Shown here: piece by piece, positions 10,559-33,573 of the stretch
How positions within the stretch are numbered: position 1 is the first letter of the stretch
Layout of the letters: the number at the start of each line of letters is the position of its first letter
NCBI RefSeq assembly: GCF_012843435.1
Contig: NZ_JABAFC010000025.1
Coordinates: forward strand, 1-54,916
DNA from: Psychrobacillus sp. BL-248-WT-3
Lineage (GTDB): Bacteria; Bacillota; Bacilli; Bacillales_A; Planococcaceae
Length of the DNA stretch: 54,916 nt
Direction: 5' to 3'
Notes under the pieces: model-generated
Database searches by the model: none
What the model saw: the letters and a program-made list of their open reading frames with translations, nothing else
What the model was told of the DNA's origin: nothing
Made by a program: the position numbers and the translations under genes

Positions 10559-10672
10559 GCAAGGTTCGGTCGCGTTTCTGCAAGGTTCTAGCCTTTTTCC
10601 GCAAGGTTCAACCTCGTTTGTGCAAGGTTCTCCTCCGTCTCCGCAAGGTTTCTCTCCCCCTCTGCAAGGTTC
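10559..10672. repeat. 21-bp-period tandem array, core GCAAGGTTC (6 copies)
   Basis: The core GCAAGGTT(C/T) starts at 10559, 10580, 10601, 10622, 10643 and 10664, exactly 21 bp apart each time. The 12-bp spacers between cores differ. The array is richer in G and C than its surroundings and lies between two convergent genes. Because 21 is a multiple of three, an open frame encoding heptads (R/C-K-V) runs through it, but no ribosome binding site supports it as a gene. Confidence 0.9.
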
Positions 10673-10710
10673 AGTATCATTCGCTTGAAATCCATCCTAC
10701 TAACATTAGA

Positions 10711-12927
10711 TTAATAGCCGTATCTATAATCTCTTCCCTTTTTAGACATCTCATGGCCCAAACGAATTGTAGAAACAGCTAGCTCCGCATAGGTCACTTG
10801 CTTGGTAGGGTTAAACTGATTTTTCTCTGCCTTTAATAGTCCTAGAGAATCCGCCAACACAATATAGCCGGTATATTCATCTTTAATTTTCTTGCTATCC
10901 GCGAAATCATTTTTGTATATCTTGGTTTGCTTAGCTGCTTCCTCTAAGCCTAATGCACGAATATACCATATAGATAGCTCCTCTTTAGTAATAGGACTAT
11001 CCACATCAAAGGTTGATTTGTCTGCAGCTATTACACCAAGTTCTACTGCTCTTTCAACAGCCTGATAGGAAGTATGCTTCGAATCGATATTAGTAAAGGT
11101 TTGTTTAGCATTCTCGGAGTCATCCATAGGATAGCCATGGTACATATATGTTAAGGAATTCATCATTATCCTAATAGCTTCCCCTTTAGATACTGCAGCA
11201 TCTCCATTAAAAGACTTTGCATCTTTTACCGTTAACACTTTAGATTGGATTAAGTAATTTAATTCGGCGGCTGCATTTGGATGAGAAACCTCTGGTAGTA
11301 CCTCTCTGTTGTATTGGTTAAACCATTTACCAGTGCTTGCCTCTAAAACCTGAAATTCTTCTTCATTAAACAATGGAGAAGAAATTAAATAGTAGTGATT
11401 ATTTTCTCGCTTCATATATTCTTTCATATAGCTTGTCTTTAGCATCACGGACTTTTTAAAAGTCTCTGTTGCTTCTTTCTCAGAAATAACTTTGTCTTTT
11501 GATGGCCACTCGTCAATCAGAGGTCTATCTATGCTTATGCTACTTAATGAACCGTCCTTGTGAATATTTACATTTATCTGATCACCCACTACCAATACTC
11601 CATCAACAATGCGAGGGAAAATGAAGTAATAACCACTCATTGGATCGGCATAGCTGGTCTCAGAAGGAAGCGCATACTCATGAAGATAAGAAGGCGAATA
11701 CTCTTTTGCATACTCCACAGCCTTAGCTAATGCTTCCTCATATGATAGGGACTTCTGATCTTTATTCTCGTCTAACATTTCCTTAATTTCTTGCTGCATA
11801 CTATGAAAACGAACTAACTCTCCTGTTTTCTTATCGAATTCTATACTAGACCCAGATCCTGAGCCATTAGAAAAATGATACATGTAGTGAACACTGATCA
11901 CTTCTTGTCCATTATAATTTTTCATTTCCTCTACCGATTGAATCGTTAATTTTATCTTACTTGAATCTACCTTCAATAAGTTCTCTGCTGTTTTCTTAGC
12001 CGCTTCTTTTGTAATGCCATTGTGTTTGACAGGCAATGCCTTGTCTACAATCATTTCAGATCCTTTATGAGCAGGATACTCCTTTAAAAACTCATAGGAA
12101 TTAAACCAATCCCCAGTAATAGCATTTACACTTAGTATTTCAGGCTTATAAACTAACTTCACATCAGGCTTATTACCTTCGTTTGGATAGGTAATTTGAT
12201 ATTGCAGCTTAGCCGTCAAATTATCCTTTATCTGATTTAGAATAACTTCAGCATCTTTACCCTTTTTTACATCATCGAAGGTAGAAGACTTGCTTGGAAT
12301 AGCCCGATTAAATCCTACAACCTCTCCATTTCCTAGTACAGTCACATTAACTTGTTGATCCCCAACAGCGACACCATCCTGCATTCGGTTAAAAGAGAAA
12401 GTATAGCGAATTGGTCGAGTTAAAATTTGTGAACTATAATAAAAATCTTCAAGTCCTTCTTCTAATTGGTAGCTACCGTCCTTCATATACTTTTTCATAA
12501 AATCATGGGCAATTTGTTTAGCTCCATCTTTAGATACTTTGCCTGGAAATAAAGAATCTGCAGTGGCAACTGGTTCATATTGAAAAGACTCTATCTCATA
12601 ATTATCCCCATAAAAACCTATGTTGCCCGAGATCTCCTTCCCTTTTTCCTGCTTATGAAAAGACATACTATGCCTAGTTGTATTTTCATATGGATTATCG
12701 TAGGAATGCATGTAGAATTCGCTAGGCTTGATTGAGTCGAAAACACCTGGAAAGCTAGCCTTAAACTTTTTAAGTAATTCCTCTTTAGACACCAAAACGT
12801 CTGTAGCAGCAACTTGCGACACAACATTATAAGGCTGTGTTCCTGTCGTATATGATGCATTTGCAGTAGCTGATAACATTCCCAGTGATAACGCGGAAGC
12901 AGTTAAAATAATTCCCATTTTCTTCAA
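10711..12927 (-). CDS. secreted YcdB/YcdC-like protein with C-terminal S-layer homology domains
   Basis: The 738-residue protein starts with a signal peptide (MKKMGIILTASALSLGM, cleavage near ANA-SYT). Residues about 40-540 resemble the YcdB/YcdC repeat region, with PepSY-like units (KEAAKKTAENLL, SYEEALAKAVEYA, ISEKEATETFKKS). The last 200 residues contain two to three SLH modules, seen in TFTNIDSKHTSYQAVERAVE and FADSKKIKDEYTGYIVLAD, which normally bind pyruvylated wall polymer. It should therefore be a cell-surface protein; function is unknown. The start codon is TTG at 12927, 7 nt after AGGGGG; an ATG three codons later is possible but too far from that site. Its 3' end faces the 21-bp array. 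Confidence 0.82.
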   Translation of the reverse strand: MKKMGIILTASALSLGMLSATANASYTTGTQPYNVVSQVAATDVLVSKEELLKKFKASFPGVFDSIKPSEFYMHSYDNPYENTTRHSMSFHKQEKGKEISGNIGFYGDNYEIESFQYEPVATADSLFPGKVSKDGAKQIAHDFMKKYMKDGSYQLEEGLEDFYYSSQILTRPIRYTFSFNRMQDGVAVGDQQVNVTVLGNGEVVGFNRAIPSKSSTFDDVKKGKDAEVILNQIKDNLTAKLQYQITYPNEGNKPDVKLVYKPEILSVNAITGDWFNSYEFLKEYPAHKGSEMIVDKALPVKHNGITKEAAKKTAENLLKVDSSKIKLTIQSVEEMKNYNGQEVISVHYMYHFSNGSGSGSSIEFDKKTGELVRFHSMQQEIKEMLDENKDQKSLSYEEALAKAVEYAKEYSPSYLHEYALPSETSYADPMSGYYFIFPRIVDGVLVVGDQINVNIHKDGSLSSISIDRPLIDEWPSKDKVISEKEATETFKKSVMLKTSYMKEYMKRENNHYYLISSPLFNEEEFQVLEASTGKWFNQYNREVLPEVSHPNAAAELNYLIQSKVLTVKDAKSFNGDAAVSKGEAIRIMMNSLTYMYHGYPMDDSENAKQTFTNIDSKHTSYQAVERAVELGVIAADKSTFDVDSPITKEELSIWYIRALGLEEAAKQTKIYKNDFADSKKIKDEYTGYIVLADSLGLLKAEKNQFNPTKQVTYAELAVSTIRLGHEMSKKGRDYRYGY

Positions 12928-13042
12928 AAATAGTCCCCCTTTTACGGTAATAATTATATTTTAAACTAATATATGGAAATTAGAAACATATATTTTCCTA
13001 AAATTTTAACTATTCATTTAAATGAATTAGTATAAGTGCCAG

Positions 13043-13098
13043 TACATGAAGTAAATTAACCGCCACTCAAACGAGAGGCGGTTAATTTACTTCATGTA
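13043..13098. repeat. 22-bp perfect inverted repeat overlapping a lipoprotein stop codon
   Basis: TACATGAAGTAAATTAACCG plus CC (13043-13064) is perfectly complementary to 13077-13098, with a 12-nt loop. The right arm covers the last codons and stop of the lipoprotein gene. There is no U-run after it, so it is an unusual terminator or an mRNA 3'-end stabiliser. Confidence 0.8.
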
Positions 13099-13566
13099 TT
13101 TATTTACTAGCTCATAGCTTCTTTCTTTAGTGAGATCGGCTAGAGCACTCGCATACAGGAATGGTTCAAGTGTTCCACCTTCAGCTTCCTGTGATTTTTC
13201 TTCTGCTATTTGATCACGTTGCACAATCCAGTCTTCTTGTTCTTTCTTTAAATCCTCGAAGTCACTTTCAGAAAGCTGGTCTTTAAGTACATCATAAACT
13301 TCATTTAATGCATCGTCCCATCTTTCAAAAGTCTCTGATTTAGCCTCGTTCATATCCGCCTGTGTACCAGATTCATATACCTTATCGAATTCCTTTAGGC
13401 TACTTTCAATCTCGTCTAATTTGTTTAGATAGGCTTCCTTCGTTCCATCATGCTCGCTAGCTTGCTCTTCAGGGACTGGAACATCAACAGCTAAATCCTT
13501 TTCTGTGCTAGAATCGCATCCTGCTAGCCAAATAAACGGGAGCATTAATATGAGAAGTTTCTTCAA
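13087..13566 (-). CDS. small acidic lipoprotein of unknown function
   Basis: The 159-residue protein has a type II signal peptide: MKKLLILMLPFIWLAGC, where LAGC is the lipobox and Cys17 would be lipidated. The mature part is short, very acidic and mostly helical (ESSLKEFDKVYES, LKKEQEDWIVQRDQIAEEK), with heptad character that suggests a coiled coil. I do not recognise a family. An ATG with GAGGGAT nearby sets the start. It should face the outside of the membrane. It stands alone between the S-layer protein gene and a divergent lipoprotein gene; its stop lies in a long inverted repeat. Confidence 0.75.
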   Translation of the reverse strand: MKKLLILMLPFIWLAGCDSSTEKDLAVDVPVPEEQASEHDGTKEAYLNKLDEIESSLKEFDKVYESGTQADMNEAKSETFERWDDALNEVYDVLKDQLSESDFEDLKKEQEDWIVQRDQIAEEKSQEAEGGTLEPFLYASALADLTKERSYELVNKYMK

Positions 13567-13867
13567 TATAATCCCTCCTATAATCTATCAGACAGAAACT
13601 TCACAGAAAAGTTTCACTTTTTCTAACGATTTATATATTTCCCACTAATTATCTCCTATTCCTTATATGTTCTTCCCCAGTATAAAGAGGATAGGCAGAT
13701 CTAACCCTTATTCAACCAAAGTCCTCATTTTTTATGTTATCCATAGACCCTTTCGCTCATTTTCTCAAAATTCAAATAAAATAGGAAGCTATTATTTTCA
13801 TATCTACTAAGGTTTGATTACAATGAATAAAAACCGATAGTTTGAGCATTAAAGCGGGAGGATTAAA
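13567..13867. promoter_or_regulatory. divergent intergenic region between two lipoprotein genes
   Basis: An AT-rich 300-bp region with a small inverted repeat near the 13566 end (GAAACT...AGTTTC at 13607-13627). It must hold promoters for both lipoprotein genes, but I see no convincing -35/-10 pair. GGGAGGA lies before the ATG at 13868. No small ORF stands out. Confidence 0.4.
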
Positions 13868-14794
13868 ATGAAGAATAACAAAATGGCCGTAGCAATTGTT
13901 AGCACAACACTTTTATTAGGAGGCTGCAATATGGAAGTAGAAAGCAAAAAGGAATCCGAAATAATTGGTAAAGGAGATGTGGCTTTAGATTCTTCAAGCT
14001 TTGTTAGTGTTCAAGATTACACTGGGGAGGAATATGCCCTACAGGACGGGGAGGAAACAGATAAAATAGCTGAAGCAAATCGAGAGGAAATTGAACAAGC
14101 GGTAAAGGACTTCTTTTTAAACAACTATAAAACAGAAGTGAAAATCCATAACATTGTGGGAGCTGTGGATGGTGCCTCTGTATTCGTGGAATCTATAAGG
14201 GAACCTCATTTTTATACATTTGCTATTGTACCTATTGATGTTGAGAATGAAAAAGTAGAAGTAGATAAAGTATGGTCTCAAGAGGGACAGATAGAAGATG
14301 CCATTACTACTGGGCTTTATGCGATGATCCATGATCAGGAATTTTCTACACTTGATAACTACTTAGAGAAACTCACTGAAGAAAATCCTTTAGTAGGTAC
14401 CCGTATGGAGGCAGTTGAAAAGGTAGGAGCTAATGGATATGCAACTCCCTATTATTATACAAGCGCTGCTGGTGAATACTTTACCGAGCTTTACAACAAA
14501 TATATAGAAAATCCTACCATTAGCAAAGAAGAGTTAAAGAGCTCAATGAAAAAGTATGATTTAAATTCAAATCTAATGCTTATTACGATTACTTTATATA
14601 TGAAAGAATCAGATACTGACCCAGATGAAGTGCTTTATGACAAAATAGTTTCTGATATCGAGCAAATGGAAGGCCTACCACGAGGCTCTTATTCCGTCAT
14701 TTTACATGATAACTTGATAAACGCAGAATATGCTGACGGCTCCAAAAAAAGCTCATTAAACAAAACTGCCTTGAATGAAATTAGAAAAGAATAG
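13868..14794 (+). CDS. DUF1672-family lipoprotein
   Basis: The 308-residue protein has a lipoprotein signal ending in LLLGGC (Cys20). The mature sequence matches the DUF1672 family known from staphylococci and bacilli as I recall it: SFVSVQDYTGEEY, NREEIEQAVKDFFLNNYKTEV, HNIVGAVDGASVFVES, EPHFYTFAIVPID and the C-terminal RGSYSVILHDNLI. No catalytic motif is seen and the function is unknown. The ATG follows GGGAGGA at good spacing. The next gene begins 14 bp after the stop, so the two form an operon; that partner is lipase-like and cytoplasmic by sequence. Confidence 0.78.
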   Translation: MKNNKMAVAIVSTTLLLGGCNMEVESKKESEIIGKGDVALDSSSFVSVQDYTGEEYALQDGEETDKIAEANREEIEQAVKDFFLNNYKTEVKIHNIVGAVDGASVFVESIREPHFYTFAIVPIDVENEKVEVDKVWSQEGQIEDAITTGLYAMIHDQEFSTLDNYLEKLTEENPLVGTRMEAVEKVGANGYATPYYYTSAAGEYFTELYNKYIENPTISKEELKSSMKKYDLNSNLMLITITLYMKESDTDPDEVLYDKIVSDIEQMEGLPRGSYSVILHDNLINAEYADGSKKSSLNKTALNEIRKE

Positions 14795-14808
14795 GAGTGA
14801 AAATCTAG

Positions 14809-16890
14809 GTGACTACTATTAATCCTGTTTCTAACGTCCAGACAACTGACCAAGATTTAGTAGAATTAGCTGGTTTTCATGCTTACCGACATTATCAAAC
14901 CGGTAAAATTATAACCGTAAACGATAAAATTTTTAAAGTAGTAGATACCCAATATGGGATGTCCTCTGGGCTAGATGCTGTTACTGTACAAAACCATGAA
15001 ACGAAGGAATTGACGGTAGTTTATATTGGGAGCGAGGACAATAAGGATTGGATTGATACGAATGCAAAGCTACTCGCTGACACTCCCCCTGCACAAGTAG
15101 GTGATGCACAAGACTACTTTGACTGGGTAAATACTAACCTTGGTAAAGTAGATTCCGTAACAGGTAACTCCCTAGGTGGAGGATTAACTAATGCTGTCGC
15201 TATTGAAAATCCTCAGGTGAAGGCTGTCACTTTAAATCCAGCCATCCTTCCTGCTGGTTTAGTAGATCCTACAATGATGTACGATAATATAACCAATTAC
15301 TATAGCCGCTTTGACTTTCTTACAAGTACAGAGGAATCGCTAGGATTAGGTAATAGAATACCTGGGAAAAAGTATAGCATCAATAATGGGGTTCCCCTCC
15401 TTTCCATGATTGCCCCGAATCATACGGGCTACGTAGATCCAGATAAAGATGGGAACTTTGTCATTGAAGTTGGCATAAAGGGACAGCCTGGACATGGATT
15501 TATCCATATTGGGGCCGACGATCATATTGTAACGAGTATTTGGACAGGGCAGCCTATTTATGGAGGCTATAGCGAAAAAATTGAGATTAACCAAGAAAAC
15601 ATGATTTTACTCTCCAATGGTATTAGAGACCAAGTAAAGGGTCGAATTACCAATGTTCAAGAGTATATAAGTAACTCAGTCAGTATTGTGGAAGATGAGA
15701 ATGCAAAATTTAGTCAGCGTGTCACCACACTTCAAGAGACATTCCAACAAAAGTTGGAGGAAATAGCTGTAGACCCACTTTTTAAGGGAATAGCGGAGAC
15801 AGGGGCCATTATCAAAGCGGCAATCGATGACTTAATCGACCTTCTGAATAAGGCTGAGGAACGTTGTCTCATCTTAAACAGCATTCTAAACTCAAAGCCT
15901 GCAGAACTTATTGAGTTTATTACCTCCACTAACATAAGTGTAGAAACGCTCTTTGCTCCGGCTAGAGACTATTTAAACCAACTCAAGCAAGATGTAGATT
16001 ACCTAGTCGCTAGTGCCCACAATATCCTTTATAACGAAATCCCTGAACTATTTAGAGGAGGCACAGACAATTTCGTTGATGCTGTTGTAGGGGAGCTTGC
16101 GGCACATTATAACGTCCTAAAGATAAACAAAGAAGAGGTGTACACTCAGTTAACAGAATATGAAGCGCAGGTTAACGACATTGCCAATTCTTTTATTAAT
16201 CGAGATGTGAGCCTAGCTGATGCTATCCACTCGGGAGCCACACCAGGAGAACGTGTAGATGCTGTTCAAAAAACAGAAATTAAAACAATTCAGGAATCTT
16301 CTTATTTAGTAATCGGAATGAAAATGAAGGAAGTCCAAGTAGAATTAGCTCATAATACAATTGTGACTGTAGGAACAACGATATTAAGACCTATCCTTTC
16401 TAGACTGGAACGTATTGTACTTTTAATAGAAGCTGCATTGACTGCCATTATTGTCGCAGTAAAGGCCGCTCAAAATATCGCGATATATGGAAATCCAATC
16501 AGCTTGTTGATGAGTATATTCACAGATTATGAGCAAAGAGTTAAAAGTGCCGTTGCCAGTGCTCTAGAGCCTCTAGTAGAAATGGAGGTCCTAATGGAAA
16601 GTTTGCGTGTTGGATTTAATCGGATGCATACAAACTTACCAGAGATGCTTGATAACTTTAAACCCTACCTGGATACCGCCATCTTTGAACCAGCTAAGTT
16701 TGAAAATGTGCGATTATACAATGTGGCGACCTTAGCCATTTTAGATGAAATGGAGCTACTGTTTAATGAAATCATTTACCAGCTTGCGGACGAAAAAGCT
16801 AATGCCATCGAAGAGACATTAGAGGTTTCCAAAAACGTATTAGGAAACCTACAAATCCTGAAGGAGCAAGTAGACAGAGGTACATTATAA
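14809..16890 (+). CDS. lipase-like (GxSxG) protein with long helical C-terminus, SA1320-like
   Basis: Residues about 15-270 resemble an alpha/beta hydrolase: an early strand TVVYIGSEDNKDW and the nucleophile elbow VTGNSLGGG, with Ser121 in G-N-S-L-G. Candidate acid and His residues follow, including HGFIHIG. The rest (about 280-693) is nearly all helical and amphipathic, like a coiled coil or membrane-interacting stalk. There is no signal peptide. I recall a staphylococcal family (SA1320) with this layout. The start is GTG with AGGAG upstream. It is co-transcribed with the DUF1672 lipoprotein gene. Whether it is an esterase, a phospholipase or an exported effector cannot be decided here. Confidence 0.68.
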   Translation: MTTINPVSNVQTTDQDLVELAGFHAYRHYQTGKIITVNDKIFKVVDTQYGMSSGLDAVTVQNHETKELTVVYIGSEDNKDWIDTNAKLLADTPPAQVGDAQDYFDWVNTNLGKVDSVTGNSLGGGLTNAVAIENPQVKAVTLNPAILPAGLVDPTMMYDNITNYYSRFDFLTSTEESLGLGNRIPGKKYSINNGVPLLSMIAPNHTGYVDPDKDGNFVIEVGIKGQPGHGFIHIGADDHIVTSIWTGQPIYGGYSEKIEINQENMILLSNGIRDQVKGRITNVQEYISNSVSIVEDENAKFSQRVTTLQETFQQKLEEIAVDPLFKGIAETGAIIKAAIDDLIDLLNKAEERCLILNSILNSKPAELIEFITSTNISVETLFAPARDYLNQLKQDVDYLVASAHNILYNEIPELFRGGTDNFVDAVVGELAAHYNVLKINKEEVYTQLTEYEAQVNDIANSFINRDVSLADAIHSGATPGERVDAVQKTEIKTIQESSYLVIGMKMKEVQVELAHNTIVTVGTTILRPILSRLERIVLLIEAALTAIIVAVKAAQNIAIYGNPISLLMSIFTDYEQRVKSAVASALEPLVEMEVLMESLRVGFNRMHTNLPEMLDNFKPYLDTAIFEPAKFENVRLYNVATLAILDEMELLFNEIIYQLADEKANAIEETLEVSKNVLGNLQILKEQVDRGTL

Positions 16891-16902
16891 TATAAAACTT
16901 TG

Positions 16903-16945
16903 GGACTCCGGTGCAGCGATGCTACATTAGAGTTCTTTTATTTTG
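16903..16945 (+). terminator. hairpin terminator
   Basis: GGACTC...GAGTTC outer stem with inner TGCAGC/GCTaCA pairing, followed by TTTTATTTT; it closes the DUF1672/lipase-like operon. Confidence 0.65.
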
Positions 16946-16982
16946 CTTACATATGATATCTAGTTCTTCTGTTCTTTTAATC

Positions 16983-17046
16983 TTGCATTGTCTTTCAATA
17001 GTCTATATACTAGTCTTTGTGCAAAAAACAAACCGACCGTTCTGTT
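16983..17046 (+). promoter_or_regulatory. sigma-A promoter and candidate TetR operator of the second pump operon
   Basis: TTGCAT (16983-16988), 17-bp spacer, TATACT (17006-17011). Just downstream, AACAAACCG-AC-CGTTCTGTT (17027-17046) is an imperfect palindrome (7 of 9 matching pairs) in the early transcribed region, followed by AAAGGAG. It is a likely autoregulatory site for the TetR gene at 17066. Confidence 0.65.
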
Positions 17047-17065
17047 TTAGAAAGGAGTAAATAAG

Positions 17066-17641
17066 ATGCCCCCAGGGATGGAAACTAAACAGCACCTTAT
17101 CAAGACTGCAGGCCACTTATTTAGTTGTTATGGTTTTGAAGCGGTAAAAATCTCCACTATTATCAACGAAAGCAACACAACTAAAGGCGCCCTTTATCAT
17201 CACTTTCCGAACGGTAAGGAAGAGCTACTTCTTGCTGCTATCCAATATACAGGAGATTTGTTACTAAGTGATACAAAAAATCTATTGAACAAATCTGCTG
17301 ATCCTATTGAAATGTTATTAAATCAATTGAATATGATTGCTACGCAAATTGAGCAAAAGCATGAATTATATGGTGTTCCTATTGGTAATATTGCAGGAGA
17401 AATGGCTCTTAAAAACAATGAGATTCGTCTAGCCTGTGACCACGTTTTTAAAAGCTGGCAAAAATTAGTGAAAGAGAAGTTTATCGATTATGGTATGTCG
17501 GAAGAATGTGCAACTAATCTTGCCATAACATTAAACGCATTATTTGAAGGTGGGATATTGTTGAGCGTCACAAGTGCTTCTGGTGATCCATTAAGAGCTA
17601 TCGCCAAACAAATACCCAATTTAGTACCACCAAAACAGTAA
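17066..17641 (+). CDS. TetR-family regulator, LmrA/YxaF type
   Basis: The 191-residue protein has a TetR HTH at the N-terminus (TAGHLFSCYGFEAVKISTII, then ESNTTKGALYHHFPNGKEEL). The C-terminal domain resembles the LmrA/YxaF subgroup (GVPIGNIAGEMA, ALFEGGILLS), whose B. subtilis members control multidrug exporters. The ATG follows AAAGGAG at 8 nt. The exporter gene starts 24 bp downstream on the same strand, so repressor and pump are made from one autoregulated transcript. This differs from the divergent arrangement at 7915-10456. Confidence 0.87.
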   Translation: MPPGMETKQHLIKTAGHLFSCYGFEAVKISTIINESNTTKGALYHHFPNGKEELLLAAIQYTGDLLLSDTKNLLNKSADPIEMLLNQLNMIATQIEQKHELYGVPIGNIAGEMALKNNEIRLACDHVFKSWQKLVKEKFIDYGMSEECATNLAITLNALFEGGILLSVTSASGDPLRAIAKQIPNLVPPKQ

Positions 17642-17665
17642 TTTATAATAGAGAGTAGGATTTAC

Positions 17666-23828: not shown

Positions 23829-25490
<1,662 letters not shown>

Positions 25491-25503
25491 TTAATTTCTT
25501 TTA

Positions 25504-25788: not shown

Positions 25789-25828
25789 GTGAAACTACCT
25801 CCCTAAAATAAGTTGAATTTAATATTTA

Positions 25829-25855: not shown

Positions 25856-25865
25856 CACACTTATA

Positions 25866-26130: not shown

Positions 26131-26850
26131 ATGAAAAAACAACAAACAGCCTTATACATATTAATCACCTACTGTGTCATGCAGCTCTCCGGAATCATCT
26201 TTGCTTCTCTGCTATTTATGGTTTTTAAATACTATAACCTGGAAAATCCTATGTTACTGGCTAACGGCTGGTGGACTTTCATCGGAATGGGGACTGCAAC
26301 AATCATCACTTTACTTATCATCCGAAAAGACAAGAGCTTTATCCGACCTTTAAAGGGACTAGCTTCGAGCACACTCAAATCAGTTGCCTGGGGAGTTTTG
26401 GGATTCATAATGGTTTTGTACGGTCAGGCCCTTGCTGCTAATATTGAGATCAAGTTTTTTGGAATCGAGCCCGGTTCTGAAAATACACAAGATTTCATGG
26501 AACTAGCTAGTTCGGTGCCCTTTGTTTTTTTCTCTATCGTATTCTTTGCCCCAATCTTAGAAGAGCTCATCTTCCGTCGTATCATTTTCGGAACATTATT
26601 ACCTAAAACAAACTTCTTTGTAGCAGCACTTATAAGCTCACTGTCCTTTGCAGTCATCCATTTTGAGTTTACGCACATACTAATATATGCTGTGTCTGGT
26701 TTTATATTCGCATTCATTTATTATAAAACTAAAAGAATCATCACTTCTATTATTGCCCATATGCTTTTAAATGGATTCGTAGTAATTGCACAACTATATA
26801 ATGAAGAAATAATTAACTTCTTTGAAAGATTAGCAGAAATGTTGCAATAA
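26131..26850 (+). CDS. ydiL: CPBP-family intramembrane metalloprotease (CAAX protease), YdiL
   Basis: The 239-residue protein has about seven hydrophobic segments and the CPBP/ABI catalytic motifs: EELIFRR (Glu144, Glu145, Arg149), FAVIHF (His177) and HMLLNG (His210, Asn214). These residues would hold a metal within the membrane. The substrate is unknown. The identity as YdiL rests on length and place: in B. subtilis ydiL lies next to groESL on the opposite strand, as here. It is divergent from groESL, has AAAGGA before the ATG and is followed 12 bp later by a GNAT gene, so the two form an operon. Confidence 0.85.
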   Translation: MKKQQTALYILITYCVMQLSGIIFASLLFMVFKYYNLENPMLLANGWWTFIGMGTATIITLLIIRKDKSFIRPLKGLASSTLKSVAWGVLGFIMVLYGQALAANIEIKFFGIEPGSENTQDFMELASSVPFVFFSIVFFAPILEELIFRRIIFGTLLPKTNFFVAALISSLSFAVIHFEFTHILIYAVSGFIFAFIYYKTKRIITSIIAHMLLNGFVVIAQLYNEEIINFFERLAEMLQ

Positions 26851-26862
26851 GGAGGAATCATT

Positions 26863-27420
26863 ATGACTTTTTCATTTACGAAGTTTCCTATAATAGAAAC
26901 AGAAAGACTTATTCTCCGAAAGGCAACTGAACAAGATTCAGACTACATTTTAAAATTGTATGCCAATGAAAATGTTGTGCAGCATATGCCACTCGATCCG
27001 TTTACTTCTATTGAAGATGCAAAAGGCGAGATTAGTTGGTACGAGAAAATATTTTCGGAGCAAACTGGTTTGCGTTGGGTAATAGAAGAGAAGGTAAACA
27101 AAAAAGTGATTGGTACGTGTGGCTATTTAAACTATGAGGTTGAACACAATCGGATAGAAATAGGCTATGACCTCTCCCCTGAATCATGGGGAAAGGGAAT
27201 TATGACGGAGACACTAAAGGCTGTTATTCACTTTGCCTTTTCAGAGTTAAATGTAAACAAAATTGAAGCTCAAATCACGTCAGAAAACGATGCCTCCCTT
27301 CACCTAGTAAGTAAGCTAGGCTTTCACAGAGATGGTGTTCTAAGGGAACATGAATTTGAAAAGGGACGCTATATCGACCTTGTCATTTATTCCCTCCTGA
27401 AAAGCGAATATACAAAGTAA
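26863..27420 (+). CDS. GNAT acetyltransferase, RimJ/RimL type
   Basis: The 185-residue protein has the RimJ/RimL-type GNAT layout: ETERLILRKATEQDSDYI at the start, RIEIGYDLSPESWGKGIMTET with the acetyl-CoA loop, and the C-terminal ITSENDASLHLVSKLGFHRDG...YIDLVIYSLL. It probably acetylates the N-terminal amine of a protein, or a small molecule. The ATG has AAGGAGG at ideal spacing, 12 bp after the ydiL stop. A perfect 12-bp terminator follows. Confidence 0.85.
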   Translation: MTFSFTKFPIIETERLILRKATEQDSDYILKLYANENVVQHMPLDPFTSIEDAKGEISWYEKIFSEQTGLRWVIEEKVNKKVIGTCGYLNYEVEHNRIEIGYDLSPESWGKGIMTETLKAVIHFAFSELNVNKIEAQITSENDASLHLVSKLGFHRDGVLREHEFEKGRYIDLVIYSLLKSEYTK

Positions 27421-27453
27421 GCCTTCGACTAAATTAGAGTCGAAGGCTTTTTC
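27419..27453 (+). terminator. intrinsic terminator
   Basis: AAGCCTTCGACT and AGTCGAAGGCTT form a perfect 12-bp stem, followed by TTTTC; the stem begins at the stop codon. Confidence 0.88.
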
Positions 27454-27500
27454 AGATGAATGGAGAAGTTTGATATCCTTGCTAGTTTTTATTTGTCGAC

Positions 27501-27546
27501 TCCCCCATTTGCCTGTCGGGGCAGGGATAGGCGCCTACGCTTTTCT
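27501..27546. repeat. solo right half of the palindromic repeat seen at 1-375
   Basis: CCCATTTGCCTGTCGGGGCA and the following GGGATAGGCGC..ACGCTTTTCT match the right half of the units at 1-375. The left half is absent. The fragment abuts the rex stop codon, just as the full array abuts the FMN reductase stop. Confidence 0.8.
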
Positions 27547-28180
27547 AGATATCGTTTCGAATCATATAGATTAGTGTTTGAAGTTCTACGGAAAGGTCAA
27601 TCGTATGTACGCGTATCTCGTCTGGTGTGCTTATAGGAACAGGCGTAAAGTTTAATATTCCTTTTACATCCGAGCCAACTAGGAGGTTTGCCACTTCTTG
27701 AGCAGAACGGCTTGGTAGAGTGAAGATTACTAATTCAATTCCATATTCCTTAAGTTTTTCTAGCATTACACTGGAATGAAAAACTGGAATATCACTGATG
27801 ATCGTTCCTTCGAGTGGTGCCTTCGTATCAAATGCTACTACTATTCTAGTGTTATGGTTTTTTTGAAAGTTATATTTAACAAAAGCTGTACCTAAGCTAC
27901 CAACACCTATCAAGGCAACTTTAGCCGCTTCGTCTTGGTCCAGTGTCTTCCGGAAGAATTCTAGAAGGTGTGGTACATCGTAGCCATAGCCTTTCTTACC
28001 TAATGCACCAAAATGAGAAAAGTCTCTACGGATGGTCGCCGAGTCGATTTTCATCGCTTCACTTAGCTGTTGGGATGAAATACGTTTATGCTCTGCATTG
28101 TGAAAGCTTTGTAAAAATCTATAATATAAAGGAAGTCGTTTCATTGTCGCTTGAGGAATGCGAGGTACATCACGTTTCAT
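27545..28180 (-). CDS. rex: redox-sensing transcriptional repressor Rex
   Basis: The 211-residue protein matches Rex over its length. The N-terminal winged helix has RLPLYYRFLQ and DSATIRRDFSHFGALGKKGYGYDV; the Rossmann domain (from about 85) has the NADH-binding GVGSLGTAF; the C-terminal helix that swaps in the dimer is DLSVELQTLIYMI. Rex senses the NADH/NAD+ ratio and represses fermentation and anaerobic genes. The ATG follows AGGAGG at 7 nt. Position between ydiL and ydiF agrees with B. subtilis, although moaC and the tat genes usually found here are absent. Confidence 0.96.
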   Translation of the reverse strand: MKRDVPRIPQATMKRLPLYYRFLQSFHNAEHKRISSQQLSEAMKIDSATIRRDFSHFGALGKKGYGYDVPHLLEFFRKTLDQDEAAKVALIGVGSLGTAFVKYNFQKNHNTRIVVAFDTKAPLEGTIISDIPVFHSSVMLEKLKEYGIELVIFTLPSRSAQEVANLLVGSDVKGILNFTPVPISTPDEIRVHTIDLSVELQTLIYMIRNDI

Positions 28181-28307
28181 AAGTATCCTCCTAATGTATA
28201 AGGCAAATTCATTTTTTCACGTTACCTTTCTTTCATTGTAAAGGGAGAACGTTGCAACGACAAGTCCTATCTATTACACTTAGGATAGAATTGAGGTGCA
28301 AATAATC

Positions 28308-30239
28308 GTGATCGTTTTACAAGTAAACCAAGTAACTAAATCCTTTAATGGGGAAGATATATTAACAAACGTAAAGCTAGAGGTTCAAGACCGTGACCGA
28401 GTTGCACTAGTCGGTCGTAACGGTGCTGGGAAATCTACCTTACTTAAAATAATTGCCGGAGAAATGTCCTATGATTCCGGTGACATTATCATGCCAAAAA
28501 ATATTAGACTAGGCTACTTAGAGCAGCATGCCGGTTTAGAATCCAAGCTGACCATTTGGGAGGAAATGAAATCTATCTTCAGTCATTTAATAGACTCCGA
28601 AAAAGAATTACGTTCATTAGAAGCCCAAATGGCTGACCCTGCTGTCTATGAGGATCCAGAAGCCTACGCTAAAGTAGCTGCTACATATGACGAGCTTCAG
28701 CTTGCATTTAACGAGGCTGGTGGCTATCGCTTTGAATCTGACATCCGCTCTATCTTACATGGGATGCAGTTTTTCCCGGACGACTATGACAAGCCTGTAC
28801 AAGCATTATCTGGCGGACAAAAAACACGCCTAGCTTTAGCTAAAATGCTATTAAGTAAGCCCGATTTACTTATACTCGATGAGCCTACAAACCATTTGGA
28901 TATCCAAACACTCAGCTTCTTAGAAAACTATTTGAAAAATTATAGTGGAGCCATTTTAATCGTATCCCATGACCGGTACTTCCTAGATCAGGTAGTAAAT
29001 CTAGTGTACGAGGTTTCTCGCCATAATGTTACGAGATACGTTGGTAACTACAGTGCCTATTTAACGCAAAAGGCAAAAAATTATGAGCTGGATAAAAAGA
29101 AGTATGAGAAGCAACAAGAGGAAAAGGCAAAGCTAGAGGATTTTGTTAGCCGTAACCTGGCTCGTGCCTCCACAACCAAGATGGCGCAGTCTAGAAGAAA
29201 GGTAATCGAGAAGACAGACTGGATGGATGCACCTGATGGCGATGAAAAATCCGCTAACTTCGGTTTTACCATCGACCGCCCAAGTGGCAATGATGTTCTG
29301 CGCTTAGAGGATGTTGCTGTTGGCTACTCCAATAAAACCGTCTCCTCTAACATCTCATTTTCTGTGTACAAGCAGGACCGGATTGCATTAGTTGGACCGA
29401 ATGGCGTCGGTAAATCCACCTTGCTGAAAACAATTATGAAGCAGCTTCCATCTGCTGGCGGGCATATTCAATACGGGACGAATGTGCAATTTGGTTACTA
29501 TGACCAGGAACAAGCAGCTCTTTCCGGCAATAAAACCGTTTTGAAAGAGCTATGGGATGAATGGCCTCTCATGAATGAAAAGGATGTTCGCAATGTACTA
29601 GGTCGCTTCCTGTTCTCTGGAGACGATGTCCAAAAAACAGTCTCTACGCTATCCGGTGGAGAAAAGGCTAGACTTGCACTTGCCAAGCTCATGCTATTGA
29701 AATCAAATACGCTAGTTCTTGATGAGCCTACAAACCATTTAGATTTGGATAGCAAAGAGGTTTTAGAGAATGCTTTGCTCGATTTCCCTGGAACAATTAT
29801 CTTCGTGTCACATGACCGTTATTTTATTAACCGAATTGCAACAAAGGTAATTGAACTCTCCTCCAAAGAAGCAACACTGTTTTTAGGTGACTATGACTAT
29901 TATCTAGAGAAAAAGGAAGAGCTCGAGGAGTTAGCAATGGAAAGCTCGATTGCACAAAATACAGTCGTTCAAAAGGTAAATACCTCGACGATTGATAAAG
30001 AAGCGAAGAAAAAGGAAAGACAAATTCGACGTCAAATCGATGAGCTCGAGGAACAAATTCCTGCTATCGATTCAGAAATCGCATTAATCGAGGAAAAGCT
30101 ATGTGATCCAGAAGTCTTCCAGGACCATGAGGCAGTCCAAAAATTACAGAGTGAGCTCGATAACCTTAAGGTAAAGCAAGACACCATCTCCAATGAATGG
30201 CTGGAGCTACAGGAACAATTAGAAGAAATTACAGGGTAA
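28308..30239 (+). CDS. ydiF: ABC-F family ATPase YdiF
   Basis: This is a soluble ABC-F protein with two ATPase domains: first Walker A GRNGAGKST, signature LSGGQKTRLALAK and Walker B LLILDEPTNHLD; second GPNGVGKST, LSGGEKARLALAK and LVLDEPTNHLD. The linker of charged helices (YEKQQEEKAKLEDFVSRNLAR) and a C-terminal coiled coil (KKKERQIRRQIDELEEQ) match YdiF. ABC-F proteins act on the ribosome. I prefer the GTG at 28308 (giving MIVLQVNQ, like YdiF), 9 nt after GAGGTG; a GTG at 28296 lies within that site. It is divergent from rex and faces the tsa operon. Confidence 0.93.
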   Translation: MIVLQVNQVTKSFNGEDILTNVKLEVQDRDRVALVGRNGAGKSTLLKIIAGEMSYDSGDIIMPKNIRLGYLEQHAGLESKLTIWEEMKSIFSHLIDSEKELRSLEAQMADPAVYEDPEAYAKVAATYDELQLAFNEAGGYRFESDIRSILHGMQFFPDDYDKPVQALSGGQKTRLALAKMLLSKPDLLILDEPTNHLDIQTLSFLENYLKNYSGAILIVSHDRYFLDQVVNLVYEVSRHNVTRYVGNYSAYLTQKAKNYELDKKKYEKQQEEKAKLEDFVSRNLARASTTKMAQSRRKVIEKTDWMDAPDGDEKSANFGFTIDRPSGNDVLRLEDVAVGYSNKTVSSNISFSVYKQDRIALVGPNGVGKSTLLKTIMKQLPSAGGHIQYGTNVQFGYYDQEQAALSGNKTVLKELWDEWPLMNEKDVRNVLGRFLFSGDDVQKTVSTLSGGEKARLALAKLMLLKSNTLVLDEPTNHLDLDSKEVLENALLDFPGTIIFVSHDRYFINRIATKVIELSSKEATLFLGDYDYYLEKKEELEELAMESSIAQNTVVQKVNTSTIDKEAKKKERQIRRQIDELEEQIPAIDSEIALIEEKLCDPEVFQDHEAVQKLQSELDNLKVKQDTISNEWLELQEQLEEITG

Positions 30240-30266
30240 GCCGATTGACTCGGTTTACCTTTTTTT
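30236..30266 (+). terminator. intrinsic terminator of ydiF
   Basis: GTAAGCCGA and TCGGTTTAC (one G-U pair) around TTGAC, followed by CTTTTTTTA; the stem starts in the stop codon. Confidence 0.85.
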
Positions 30267-30491
30267 ATATGGGGAAAAATATATAATGTCGAACTATTTA
30301 TTTTTGGGATTAACTATTCAATTTATAAAGAAAACAGTCAGATTAATGGGACAAGCCAACCCATTATTAAATTGATCGAGTCGGTTTATGGTACAAAGTT
30401 GTCTAATCGTTCTAACAGGATATCAGATACCCATGTTGTATTTTGTCGAACGATGGCATATATAGGTCAAGCCCCTTTTTCCTAAAAATCT

Positions 30492-30663
30492 TTTTCCACA
30501 TATTTATTAACATCAAAAGTACTGTCATATCAATCTATCAACAGGTTTATCCACATTGTCCACAGATTAAAAACTTAGTTTTCCACAAGTTGTGAGTATA
30601 AATAACCACAATATATTGAAAACACACAACTTACTAACAAGTTATCAACAAATTGTGCATAAG
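30492..30663. promoter_or_regulatory. cluster of DnaA boxes between ydiF and tsaD
   Basis: One perfect box TTATCCACA (30547-30555) and single-mismatch boxes TTTTCCACA (30492, 30579), TTGTCCACA (30557), TTATCAACA (30642) and, on the other strand, TTATGCACA (30663-30655). The 500-bp gap carries no gene. I recall that the equivalent B. subtilis gcp-ydiF interval is one of the chromosomal DnaA-binding clusters outside oriC. Confidence 0.75.
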
Positions 30664-30702
30664 TACGAATGTTCTCTATTGACAACCGAAATAATACATG
30701 GT

Positions 30703-30739
30703 AAAAAATCCTCTTTTCTTGTCGAAGAAAAGAGGATTT
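30703..30739 (-). terminator. intrinsic terminator of the tsa operon
   Basis: AAATCCTCTTTTCTT and AAGAAAAGAGGATTT form a perfect 15-bp stem with loop GTCG; a T-run follows on the minus strand. Confidence 0.92.
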
Positions 30740-30742
30740 CGT

Positions 30743-31762
30743 TTAGTTCCAGCTATTTAATTCTAACCCAGGACGACCATTCATCGCTAAATCCCCTATT
30801 TGCCCAGCTGAAAATTTAGAGCTACCAGCAGCTGCGATCATGGCTGCATTGTCTGTACACAATTTGATCGGAGGCACATAAAAAGGAATATTCTCTTTTT
30901 GGAATGCTTCTTCCAATGCTTTTCGCAGTCCTTTATTTGCTGCTACACCACCAGCAGCAATTACTTGCTTCACATTAAACTCCCTGGCTGCACGAAGCGT
31001 TTTAGTAGTGAGTACTTCTATTACGCTCTCTTGGAAGCCCGCGGCAAGATGGTTAGGATTGATTGCTTCCCCTCTTTGCTCCGCATTATGCTGATAATTG
31101 ATGACTGCAGATTTTAAGCCACTAAAACTAAAATCATAAGAGCCCTCCTCTAGCCAAGCCCTTGGGAAAGGCACTGCTTGATCGCTCTCATTTGCTAGAC
31201 GATCTATGTGTGGACCACCAGGATAAGGGAGATTCAAGACTCTAGCTACTTTGTCATAAGCCTCTCCAGCTGCATCATCGCGTGTTTCTCCGATTAGCTC
31301 AAATTGACCGTCTTCTTTCATCAACACTAGCTCGGTATGCCCTCCTGATACTACTAGAGCAAGTAACGGAAATTCCATCGGCTGGACCAACGCATTTGCA
31401 TAAATATGCCCCGCAATATGATGAACTCCTACTAAAGGCAGACCGTTTGCAAACGAGAATGCTTTTGCAGCGTTTATTCCTATTAATAGGGCACCTACTA
31501 GCCCAGGGCCTTCGGTTACTGCCACTGCATCTAAATCCTGAGGAGTCATGTCCGCTTGCTTTAAAGCTTCTTCTATAACCAGTGTGATTTGCTCCACATG
31601 ATGACGAGAAGCAACCTCTGGAACCACTCCACCAAAGCGCTTGTGACTTTCTATTTGTGATGCTACGACATTGGATATTATTTCTGTTCCATTTTTGACT
31701 ATGGAAGCCGCTGTTTCATCACAGCTTGTTTCTATTCCTAAAATATATTGATCTTTTGTCAT
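30743..31762 (-). CDS. tsaD: tRNA threonylcarbamoyladenosine transferase subunit TsaD
   Basis: This is the ASKHA-fold catalytic subunit that, with TsaB and TsaE, transfers threonylcarbamoyl to A37 of ANN-decoding tRNAs. Visible motifs are [11 protein letters not shown] at the start, [14 protein letters not shown], and the metal-binding HxxxH (His115 and His119 in HHIAGHIYA), then [11 protein letters not shown] and [13 protein letters not shown] place the start at ATG 31762, which overlaps the rimI stop (ATGA) and has GGTGG at 6-7 nt; a GTG five codons upstream lacks a ribosome binding site. It is the last gene of tsaE-tsaB-rimI-tsaD. Confidence 0.97.
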
Positions 31763-32217
31763 TTGAATTCCACCCACATTACAAGAGCATCCTCTTGTGT
31801 ATCTGTATAATAATTTTTACGAATGCCTCCATCCTGGAAGCCAAGCTTGTAATATAAATTTTTTGCAACCGTATTGGATACGCGTACCTCTAACGTCATA
31901 AGTACTCCTTGTTGTTCCTTTACAATACGGATCGCCTCACGCATTAAGCCTTCCCCAATTCGATGGCCTCGCATACGTTCTGCTACTGCCACATTCGTGA
32001 TATGACTTTCATCCATGACAATCCACATTCCACAATAGCCGACAATATCCTTTTCCTCTATCTCCGCTACTAAATAGTAGGAATATAGATTAGTCGTCAT
32101 TTCATGCTCGAATGCCTCTCTAGTCCATGGATGTGCGAATGCCTCTTCTTCTATTAAAAGCACCTGGTCTATGTCTTCTATAGTCATTTTGCGATAGGTA
32201 ATCGTTTTAGTTTCCAT
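31759..32217 (-). CDS. rimI: ribosomal protein S18 alanine N-acetyltransferase RimI
   Basis: The 152-residue GNAT protein has the RimI features [53 protein letters not shown] (acetyl-CoA loop) and [19 protein letters not shown]. RimI acetylates the N-terminus of ribosomal protein S18 and is usually encoded between tsaB and tsaD, as here. It overlaps tsaB by 11 bp and tsaD by 4 bp, so translation is coupled. No AGGAGG precedes the ATG. Confidence 0.94.
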
Positions 32218-32893
32218 TTTTCTTCTGCTCTTTCATCCAGTTTGCCTCTGCCTCTGTTATTCGCAAATATTCTGGTACCGTAGTATGTACACTTACCGGC
32301 TCCATTCTTTGCGCAATTTCTATTAGGACTGCAGCACTTGGTAATGAAAATGATGCTCCTGCTTGGTGGACTTTATCGCCAAGCACGTCTTTTATTTGTT
32401 CCCAATGAAGAGCTACATCCATTCCGACAAATAAAACCTGGTGCCCCATCTCATCCAAAGTAGATAGCAAATCTGCCATAGACATATGAGATTCCTTCAC
32501 TAATTTACCGTCCGTATAAATTCCCGCAAATACATTTCCACGTCGAGCATCCATAATGGAACACACCGTCCCTTGGAAATATGGTGCGTTCCCTGCAAGC
32601 ACCTGCAAACTTGAAACCGAGTAAATTGGAATATTTAACGTCCAAGCGAGCGTCTTTCCGATTGTCACACCGATTCGCACTCCCGTATAAGAGCCTGGCC
32701 CTTTTGCCACCGCAATCGCATCTAGCTCGTTAGGCTGAATATTAGCTTTTTTCATAAGCTCCTCTATTGCTGGCATCGTTCCAATGGAATGAGTTACCTT
32801 CACTGAGGACTTATATTCTGCAAGCACCTGCCCGTCCTTTACGACTGCTACCGCAAGCGGTGTATGAGATGTATCTATTCCTAACCAAATCAT
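32207..32893 (-). CDS. tsaB: tRNA threonylcarbamoyladenosine biosynthesis protein TsaB
   Basis: The 228-residue paralogue of TsaD has an ASKHA N-terminal lobe (WLGIDTSHTPLAVAVVKDG) and the family motif AVAKGPGSYTGVRIGVTIGKTLAW, but lacks the HxxxH metal site of TsaD, as expected. It is the scaffold of the t6A enzyme and has no activity alone. The ATG overlaps the tsaE stop (GAATGA) and follows GAGGAG at 8 nt. Confidence 0.95.
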   Translation of the reverse strand: MIWLGIDTSHTPLAVAVVKDGQVLAEYKSSVKVTHSIGTMPAIEELMKKANIQPNELDAIAVAKGPGSYTGVRIGVTIGKTLAWTLNIPIYSVSSLQVLAGNAPYFQGTVCSIMDARRGNVFAGIYTDGKLVKESHMSMADLLSTLDEMGHQVLFVGMDVALHWEQIKDVLGDKVHQAGASFSLPSAAVLIEIAQRMEPVSVHTTVPEYLRITEAEANWMKEQKKNGN

Positions 32894-33342
32894 TCAAAAA
32901 GCTCCTCACATAATTGTTCATATCTCTTCCCAAAAGGCTCAAACGTAAATCGACGCTTGTCATTGTCCAGTCGATGAATCTGTATTGCCAATCGTTCAGG
33001 CGGCAAATCCTCTTGTATTAAATGAGCCCACTCAATAATGCTTACTGCATCACCGTAAAAAAGCTCGTCCCAGCCCAGATCCTCATCACTATCCGCTAAA
33101 CGGTAAACATCCAAATGGTTTAAAGGTAGCCTACCCTCATATTGCTTCAATATGGTAAACGTTGGGCTGTTCACGTTTCTTGTGATTCCAAGACCCTTCG
33201 CCACACTTTTCGTAAATATTGTCTTCCCTGCTCCCAAATCTCCCTCTAATGTCAGGACATCTGCAGGCTGTAATAACTCAGCTAGCTGTCGGGCCAAAAC
33301 TTCCGTCTCCAGCTCCGAATCAATCAATCGCTCATACATCAT
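32890..33342 (-). CDS. tsaE: tRNA threonylcarbamoyladenosine biosynthesis ATPase TsaE
   Basis: The small P-loop ATPase has Walker A LEGDLGAGKTIF, NSPTFTILKQYEGRLPLNHLDVYRL and IEWAHLI, all diagnostic of TsaE, which drives turnover of the TsaBD complex by ATP hydrolysis. I place the start at ATG 33342, 9 nt after AAAGGA; the longer frame from TTG 33366 lacks a ribosome binding site. It is the first gene of the operon. Confidence 0.94.
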   Translation of the reverse strand: MMYERLIDSELETEVLARQLAELLQPADVLTLEGDLGAGKTIFTKSVAKGLGITRNVNSPTFTILKQYEGRLPLNHLDVYRLADSDEDLGWDELFYGDAVSIIEWAHLIQEDLPPERLAIQIHRLDNDKRRFTFEPFGKRYEQLCEELFE

Positions 33343-33482
33343 CGATCGCTTTCCTTTCAAGTACAAATCTATTTGACTCTATTATAAAGAATAACCGCTC
33401 ATAATGTAACTCTAGGACATTTATATGTACAGAACTCTTTAAATGAAGAACAGCTCTAAGATATAGCTGAATGCTCCGATTA

Positions 33483-33573
33483 CGACAATCAAAGCCTAGA
33501 TTACTACAATCACCGGTAGTTTGCGACAATCAACCTCTGGATTACTACAATCCTCACATCTTTTACGACAATC
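33483..33573. repeat. ~21-bp-period tandem array, core (C/G)xACAATC (5 copies)
   Basis: The core C(G/T)ACAATC, usually preceded by TTA, begins at 33483, 33504, 33524, 33545 and 33566: spacings of 21, 20, 21 and 21 bp. Cores alternate CGACAATC and CTACAATC; the bases between differ. Unit length matches the arrays at 10559 and 43277, but the core sequence is unrelated. Confidence 0.85.

What the first reader, a model, noticed from the sequence alone, without database searches (positions are those of the whole stretch)
10559..33573. Two further arrays with unrelated cores but the same 21-bp period
GCAAGGTTC at 10559 has six copies exactly 21 bp apart; C(G/T)ACAATC at 33483 has five copies at 21, 20, 21, 21. 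Neither core resembles the 43277 core, yet period, short core plus variable spacer, and intergenic position are the same. Independent sequences converging on one period suggest selection on spacing. A family of phased intergenic arrays may be spread through this genome.
Basis: partly seen in the sequence, partly recalled or inferred. Interest (0 to 1): 0.75.

Follow-up and report, generated by a model that had tools for sequence, protein, structure and literature searches.

The report
Evenly spaced bacterial satellite DNA arrays
Short DNA motifs repeated about every 21 letters lie between genes in this bacterium; such arrays are a known kind, but one type of jumping gene was found here almost only inside them whatever their sequence, which suggests that the cell treats them as one kind of site.

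Summary
Array 1 (10559-10672) has six 21-bp units; array 2 (33480-33573) has five (21, 20, 21, 21). Both belong to families spread through a Psychrobacillus-type genome. Intergenic DNA shows autocorrelation peaks at 21, 42 and 63 bp. In a 336-kb region only periods 19-23 give intergenic arrays.

The central idea, constant size with unrelated sequences, is already published for Bacillus (20-21 and 52 nt; PMC8161180). These arrays are new members of that known kind.

New here, as far as I could search: (1) long arrays of several families are often built from five-unit blocks of about 102-106 bp with one 18-20-bp unit; (2) cores stay while spacers turn over, and one orthologous gap carries different families in two strains; (3) arrays are enriched between convergent genes; (4) an IS256/Mutator-type insertion sequence lies in arrays at 16 of 18 left ends in two strains, in at least five families. 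Its 90%-identical relative in another genus lies in arrays at 6 of 6 sites in one genome (21- and 52-nt classes) and 0 of 1 in a second.

Best reading: the arrays share a feature, probably a bound protein, that the transposase reads. No such protein was identified.

The parts
9584..10456 (+). TetR-family regulator gene whose 3' end faces array 1
   Evidence: ORF, Pfam TetR_N 1.2e-14
10464..10493 (+). inverted repeat followed by a T-run after the TetR gene (terminator-like), between gene and array
   Evidence: read by eye
10559..10672 (+). Array 1, family A: six units, core (Y)GCAAGGTTC, exact 21-bp period, in a convergent gap
10711..12927 (-). YcdB/YcdC-repeat protein with SLH domain, convergent neighbour of array 1
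   Evidence: ORF, Pfam DUF4901 and SLH
32890..33366 (-). tsaE, gene downstream of array 2
   Evidence: ORF, Pfam TsaE 2.5e-37
33480..33573 (+). Array 2, family E: five cores TTRCKACAATC, spacings 21, 20, 21, 21
33684..34103 (-). yugN-like gene upstream of array 2
   Evidence: ORF, Pfam YugN 6.4e-40
43277..43617 (+).

Best explanation
The arrays are satellite-like DNA platforms. Shown: a unit is a conserved core of about 8-13 bp plus a free spacer, held at about two helical turns (21 bp); in several families five units often form a block of about 102-106 bp, near ten turns; cores and spacing persist while spacers and copy number turn over; arrays are enriched between convergent genes; and one transposon lineage is found in them, in two genera, largely regardless of core sequence and of size class (21 or 52 nt). 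Inferred: the spacing puts the cores on one face of the helix so that copies of a DNA-binding protein, or paralogues with drifting specificity, sit side by side and touch; this assembly, rather than any one sequence, is what the transposase reads; it probably organises the chromosome or handles supercoiling at gene ends. The protein has not been identified.
For: Period. Core against spacer information: (units were picked by seven core positions; the adjoining ACCG, not used for picking, still carries 1.6-2.0 bits). Strain comparison (G000 against same-species G011, about 96% identical over matches), 16 family-B array comparisons: core differences 89/1160, spacer 151/622, flank 379/3376 (misaligned copies included); in the seven with no indel column, core 11/494 and spacer 33/248. 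Whole-unit changes. Sister species G002 keeps the array-2 core at the same yugN-tsaE site with different spacers and more units. Blocks: for family F the next unit of 19 bp or less comes exactly five units on in 20 of 20 cases and in at most 1 case at each of lags 1-4 and 6-8; family E in G002 peaks at lag 103; a 103-bp block of ~21-bp units, divided by eye, occurs in another genus (L304). Location: 21 of 39 array-bearing gaps are convergent, 55 of 342 array-free gaps, p=6e-7; without gaps that border the insertion sequence, 20 of 36, p=5e-7. Insertion sequence: 16 of 18 left ends in or at the edge of arrays of families B, C, D (next to an A array), E and F, read by eye; by an automatic rule on the left flank alone 13 of 18, against 131 of 3000 random intergenic points, P=1.5e-14. 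In another genus, 6 of 6 copies in G255, one in a 21-bp-class and five in 52-nt arrays, while detected arrays are 4.9% of intergenic DNA there. Target duplications are mostly 8 bp, with no consensus seen. No RNA fold beyond shuffles in 10 strands of five arrays, z -1.2 to +1.8.
Against: No binding protein was found and none was searched for. Seven cores in one genome are hard for one sequence-specific protein. The transposase could read DNA shape or supercoiling. The five-unit rule has clear exceptions: one F locus uses eight units (169 bp), two of three D loci with short units use four or six, and A varies from four to seven; block lengths do not fit one helical repeat exactly. In the seven indel-free strain pairs, 32 of 33 spacer differences come from two pairs. 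The single copy in G244 is not in an array, and two Psychrobacillus insertions lie about 150 bp apart in one ORF. Orientation follows the replichore for A 8/8, D 4/4, F 6/7 but not for B 10/17, C 2/3, E 1/5 or G 0/1. In 80 loci of other Bacillales the detector gave 9 arrays at period 21 but also up to 8 at periods such as 27 and 31.
Confidence: 0.5

Rival explanations
1. Selfish or neutral minisatellites: arrays grow by slippage and unequal exchange with a mechanistic preference for about 21 bp, spread by copying, and collect in convergent gaps because nothing is broken there.
For: Blocks at one locus are near copies of each other; unit number changes between strains; eight pairs among 90 array flanks show homology, two of them due to the insertion sequence, so some composite pieces were copied between loci; convergent gaps are tolerant places.
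Against: Pure duplication would homogenise spacers as much as cores, but cores are more conserved between loci, between strains and at one site between species; family B intervals stay at 21 in 70 of 71. It does not explain why a transposon is found in arrays rather than in other intergenic DNA.
Confidence: 0.22
2. The shared feature is in the DNA alone: helically phased motifs give bent or easily strained DNA, or positive supercoiling collects at convergent gene ends, and the transposase prefers that.
For: No consensus seen in the target duplications; families with unrelated cores are hit; convergent location. Tobes & Pareja 2006 (PMC1525189, passages) raise supercoiling for REP elements.
Against: None of the 18 Psychrobacillus left ends lies in an array-free intergenic gap: 16 in or at the edge of arrays, two in an ORF, although array-free gaps are far more common. 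Bending alone would not need conserved cores.
Confidence: 0.25
3. BIME-like supercoiling or insulation sites: arrays between convergent genes recruit gyrase or block read-through. This overlaps with the best explanation.
For: Convergent enrichment; a terminator-like hairpin lies between facing gene end and array in 33 of 54 cases against 159 of 319 in array-free gaps.
Against: The terminator difference is small; 18 of 39 array gaps are not convergent; units are direct repeats, not palindromes.
Confidence: 0.15
4. Transcribed non-coding RNA, as Subirana & Messeguer propose for 52-nt repeats.
For: They report RNA-seq reads over 52-nt repeats of B. coagulans (PMC8161180; PMC8625621, passages).
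Against: No fold above shuffles in 10 strands; no Rfam match in the window at gathering score; 33 of 54 facing gene ends have a terminator-like site before the array; orientation of B and E is mixed. No expression data were at hand.
Confidence: 0.06

Closest known systems
Constant-size, variable-sequence tandem repeats of Bacillus, 20-21 nt and 52 nt classes (Subirana & Messeguer 2020, 2021)
   Same: About 21-bp size, several families per genome, short conserved motif, non-coding, only partly conserved between strains.
   Different: Another genus; five-unit blocks, convergent enrichment, family swap at one site and targeting by an insertion sequence are not in the parts read (1-4 of 5 of PMC8161180). 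The 2020 paper could not be read.
REP/BIME elements
   Same: Intergenic, clustered, often between convergent genes, targets of insertion sequences including an IS256-family one (PMC1525189, passages).
   Different: REPs are palindromic; these are direct repeats of several families.
[quoted passage not shown]
   Same: The array-hitting element encodes Transposase_mut, E 1.2e-109, and makes 8-bp duplications.
   Different: Guerillot et al. 2014 (PMC3942029, passages) call IS256-family insertions apparently random. Relatives at 46-69% identity (20 genomes) show no such array beside the element in 28 scored of 30 loci; the score would have missed one degenerate 52-nt array (L302).
Plasmid iterons and ParR/TubR centromere repeats (recalled, no call)
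   Same: Direct repeats about two turns apart bound side by side.
   Different: Many chromosomal loci and several cores; no rep or par gene among the neighbours of the window arrays that Pfam named.

Membership tests
20-21 nt constant-size tandem repeats (Subirana & Messeguer) | repeat size 20-21 with variable sequence | tested here: met
20-21 nt constant-size tandem repeats (Subirana & Messeguer) | at least four repeats, 60% or more of equal length within 1 nt | tested here: met
   array 1 six units at 21; array 2 five units at 20-21
20-21 nt constant-size tandem repeats (Subirana & Messeguer) | several families of equal size in one genome, each with a short conserved motif | tested here: met
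   families A-G
20-21 nt constant-size tandem repeats (Subirana & Messeguer) | species-specific sequences | tested here: inconclusive
   family A pair in 3 of 19 genus genomes, both strains included; but A, E and G occur in sister species G002 and B and F pairs in some congeners
20-21 nt constant-size tandem repeats (Subirana & Messeguer) | non-coding | tested here: met
   no ORF of 80 aa over arrays 1 and 2; 18-20-bp units break frame. A 95-aa ORF crosses part of array 3
CRISPR array | identical repeats with strain-specific spacers | tested here: not met
   short degenerate cores; many orthologous B arrays share spacers between strains
CRISPR array | cas genes | not tested
   no search made
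REP/BIME | palindromic units forming hairpins | tested here: not met
   no fold above shuffles in 10 strands
DnaA-box cluster | TTATCCACA-like core (recalled) | tested here: not met
   cores differ; DnaA-box-like clusters were seen in relatives and masked
iterons or plasmid centromeres | linked rep or par gene | tested here: inconclusive
   neighbours of the window arrays are TetR, YcdB/SLH, TsaE, YugN, 3D/LysM and one unnamed; neighbours of other arrays were not annotated

The most novel reading that the evidence does not exclude
The two published constant-size repeat classes (20-21 and 52 nt) are one functional kind of chromosomal platform. Its larger unit is a module of about ten helical turns (five 21-bp units or two 52-nt units, about 104 bp); it is occupied by a common conserved factor whatever the core sequence; and one IS256/Mutator-type lineage has evolved to land on that factor, which makes its transposase a ready-made probe.
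Probability: 0.3. Interest if true: 0.88.

Novelty: new member of a known kind. Interest (0 to 1): 0.7.

Why it matters
Constant-size repeats with changing sequence are an unexplained feature of Bacillus-type genomes, with no handle on function in what I could read. A transposon lineage that is found in them across families, both size classes and two genera suggests that cells present them as one class, and offers a concrete tool (the transposase as bait) to find what binds them. If a common protein exists, it would be a new chromosome-organising system with fast-changing DNA specificity, comparable in behaviour to satellite DNA of eukaryotes.

Tried and rejected
Rejected: coding heptads (18-20-bp units break the frame); structured RNA (no Rfam match at gathering score); CRISPR; phage origin (family B pair 0 hits in viral contigs; triple of family A 3 hits, of which L275 looks like coding DNA and L274 has irregular spacing; L276 was not read); DnaA boxes (they gave a false 31-bp peak in relatives that vanished on masking). 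The idea that 52 nt is 21+31 was dropped for that reason. A guess that sister species G002 has an ACAACGTT family at the array-1 site failed: 0 of 3 genomes; that site has no clear array there. One fixed helical repeat does not fit all families. Plasmids hold no close relative of the insertion sequence (782 records at E up to 1e-100, all under 60%). In the 80 tsaE loci only a few convincing 21-bp arrays were read (Neobacillus, Bacillus, Sporosarcina, Bhargavaea, P. soli), and the detector there gave similar numbers at some other periods (9 at 21; 8 at 27 and 31); with DnaA boxes masked the autocorrelation does peak at 21, 42, 52, 63 and 104 (56, 55, 80, 48, 62).

Caveats on counts: array loci in G011 were partly fetched by A, B and F pattern hits, so family shares are not unbiased; anchors on cores intact in G000, which can lower the core rate by up to a factor of two; gene calls are simple ORF calls; the terminus was taken as the chromosome midpoint, and two of the five E arrays there are halves of one array split by the insertion sequence; four array gaps border the insertion sequence and were merged or dropped in the recount. 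Array coverage comes from Tandem Repeats Finder and misses degenerate arrays. The first rule for insertion flanks flagged only 7 of 13 loci of the two close sets because its control lags hit multiples of the F period; one search replaced it. Three junctions read as arrays by eye do not pass the rule: L277 (array on the other side), L280 and L291 (degenerate; in L291 the last clear core lies about 45 bp from the element). Near distant relatives of the element, L322 has a two-copy 23-bp repeat and L330 a repeat with a 50-bp row, both 600 bp or more from the frame.
Full report
OBSERVATION. Array 1 has six GCAAGGTT cores exactly 21 bp apart from 10559 (five are GCAAGGTTC, one GCAAGGTTT), in the gap between a TetR-family gene and a convergent YcdB/SLH gene. 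Array 2 has five TTRCKACAATC cores at 21, 20, 21, 21 between yugN and tsaE, both on the minus strand. The 20 is a 1-bp deletion relative to G011, which has six units, all at 21. The nearest named genomes are Psychrobacillus (83-87% identity in TsaE).

GENOME-WIDE TEST. In a 336-kb stretch compared with its 364-kb counterpart in G011, a chain detector found intergenic arrays at periods 19-23 only (three at 21 in each), none at 13-18 or 24-35. Sister species G002 gave three at 21 and, outside 19-23, one at 30 and two at 31, in 400 kb. In 80 loci of other Bacillales the detector was not specific: 9 at 21 but 8 at 27 and at 31.

FAMILIES. Seven cores were found: A YGCAAGGTTC, B RACCGACCGATTWT, C TTTAGGTG, D GCAACACTT, E TTRCKACAATC, F TTTAYGGG followed by CGC or ACAC, G TTTATSACCG. 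Pair counts in the two strains: A 27 and 17, B 58 and 48, F 103 and 102; the reversed pattern gave 0 each time. Among 17 other genus genomes the A pair occurs in one; B pairs occur in 3 and F pairs in 2 of the 4 others looked at. Families share part-motifs (A-D GCAA; C-D-F CACTT; C-E-F-G TTTA; B-G ACCG); this was seen by eye and not tested.

UNIT ANATOMY. In 104 family-B units of 17 arrays, twelve core positions carry 1.4-2.0 bits, two edge positions about 0.9 and seven spacer positions 0-0.3 (units were picked by seven of the core positions). Yet 70 of 71 intervals measured in G011 are exactly 21. In long arrays one unit in about five is 18-20 bp. For F the next unit of 19 bp or less comes five units later in 20 of 20 cases and in at most one case at each other distance up to eight. 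Block lengths: F 104-106, C 104-105, E 103 (one of 105), D 102 at one locus (held from both strains). Exceptions: one F locus (both strains) has an eight-unit, 169-bp block; two other D loci have four- and six-unit blocks; A runs from four to seven units, 103 bp being the commonest. Family E in G002 shows the 103-bp block (lag 103 count 190), and a 103-bp repeat in another genus divides by eye into 21, 20, 21, 21, 20 with an unrelated core (L304).

TURNOVER. The strains are about 96% identical over 161 kb of matches, some of them paralogous. Over 16 comparisons of B arrays, cores differ at 89/1160, spacers at 151/622 and flanks at 379/3376 positions; in the seven without indel columns 11/494 and 33/248, 32 of those 33 in two pairs. 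Units are gained or lost whole, e.g. six against four at L168/L160. At one gap before the same terminator, G000 carries family A and G011 family D in the same orientation, with the end of the neighbouring gene also diverged, so an allele was probably exchanged. At another, both carry family G but in opposite orientation. Array 2 is kept in G002 with the same core and different spacers.

PLACE. Of 39 array-bearing gaps in G011, 21 are convergent, against 55 of 342 array-free gaps of 100 bp or more (odds ratio 6.1, p=6e-7). Without gaps that border the insertion sequence it is 20 of 36 (odds ratio 6.5, p=5e-7). A terminator-like site lies between facing gene end and array in 33 of 54 cases, 159 of 319 in controls. 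Orientation relative to the replichore is uniform for A (8/8), D (4/4) and nearly so for F (6/7), but not for B (10/17), C (2/3), E (1/5) or G (0/1).

THE INSERTION SEQUENCE. Two pairs of array flanks shared 376 and 394 identical bases. They proved to be a 1.5-kb element with a Mutator-type transposase. A search with its left end found 6 copies in G011 and 12 left ends in G000, all 12 at contig ends. Read against the flanks, 5 of 6 and 11 of 12 lie in or at the edge of arrays: F seven, C three, E three, B two, and one in a D unit beside an A array. In the five G011 cases array units stand on both sides. The two exceptions, one per strain, lie about 150 bp apart in one ORF. With an automatic rule on the left flank alone, 13 of 18 pass, against 131 of 3000 random intergenic points (P=1.5e-14). 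Eight-bp duplications fall in core or spacer, with no consensus seen. A search of 261 genomes of the order found 90%-identical relatives in two genomes of another genus. All six copies in G255 (one broken by a stop) lie in arrays: one in a 21-bp-class array and five in 52-nt arrays, one of these degenerate with palindromic cores spaced 52, 61, 52. The single copy in G244 does not. Detected arrays are 0.9% of the G255 sample and 4.9% of its intergenic DNA (P=1.5e-8 within intergenic DNA; G011 8e-8, G000 2e-16). Relatives at 46-69% identity (20 of 398 genomes; 30 loci, 28 long enough to score) show no such arrays beside the element; whether their hosts own arrays was not tested. That intergenic sites are harmless cannot explain the preference, because array-free intergenic DNA is far larger.

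MECHANISM. Shown: common spacing, conserved cores, free spacers, a frequent five-unit block in several families, convergent enrichment, and one transposon lineage found in unrelated arrays of both size classes. Inferred: something common marks them in the cell, most likely protein assembled along one face of the helix at two-turn steps, and the transposase uses it to land in harmless DNA. DNA shape or supercoiling alone remains a serious rival.

WHAT IS KNOWN. Subirana & Messeguer (PMC8161180, parts 1-4 of 5 read) report in 176 Bacillus genomes that most tandem repeats are 20-21 or 52 nt with variable sequence, in several families per genome, note that 20-21 nt is two turns, and propose a polymerising protein or small RNAs. 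Their 2020 paper is not held. I did not find the block structure, convergent enrichment or transposon targeting in what I read, nor in the listings of searches, which cover an open-access library only. Guerillot et al. 2014 (PMC3942029, passages) call IS256-family insertions apparently random; Tobes & Pareja 2006 (PMC1525189, passages) show REPs as IS targets, the nearest precedent.

VERDICT. Observation confirmed, interpretation supported, kind already known; the transposon link and the five-unit block are the parts worth following.

Noticed in passing
window 1-380: GC-rich 125-bp tandem repeat (3 copies) at the contig edge, a different kind of repeat.
   Followed up: no
L147:11954-13450 (G011:C1:749953-751449): IS256/Mutator-type element of about 1.5 kb: 6 copies in G011, 12 left ends in G000 (all at contig ends), 16 of the 18 in or at the edge of arrays.
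   Followed up: yes
G011:C1:250507-250662 and G000:C10:67961-68037: The two insertions outside arrays lie about 150 bp apart in the same ORF, one in each strain; a second, non-array hot spot is possible.
   Followed up: partly
L077:12698-12828, L095:3232-3362, L108:2908-2994, L080:5040-5087, L081:12771-12843: DnaA-box-like clusters (TGTGGATAA) in the tsaE region of several Bacillales, partly at about 20-bp steps; not these families.
   Followed up: partly
L088:7499-8431, L080:632-1029, L098:10166-10367, L105:857-990, L079:363-478: 52-53 nt arrays in other Bacillales; by eye the units hold a motif and its reverse complement.
   Followed up: partly
G011:C1 about 1063657-1064066 and 1523696-1524106: A D array next to an A array at two loci, with homologous DNA around them: a copied composite.
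   Followed up: partly
G011:C1 about 574316-575010 and 1737454-1737640: B array, GC-rich hairpin and C-type units side by side at two loci, with homologous flanks.
   Followed up: partly
L272:8944-9408 (G002): In the family E block of G002 the place of the missing unit holds an inverted repeat (TGCTC...GAGCA), seen by eye.
   Followed up: no
G000 sample, coding DNA: Strong 9/18/27-bp autocorrelation in coding DNA, as a repetitive protein gene would give; its identity was not checked.
   Followed up: no
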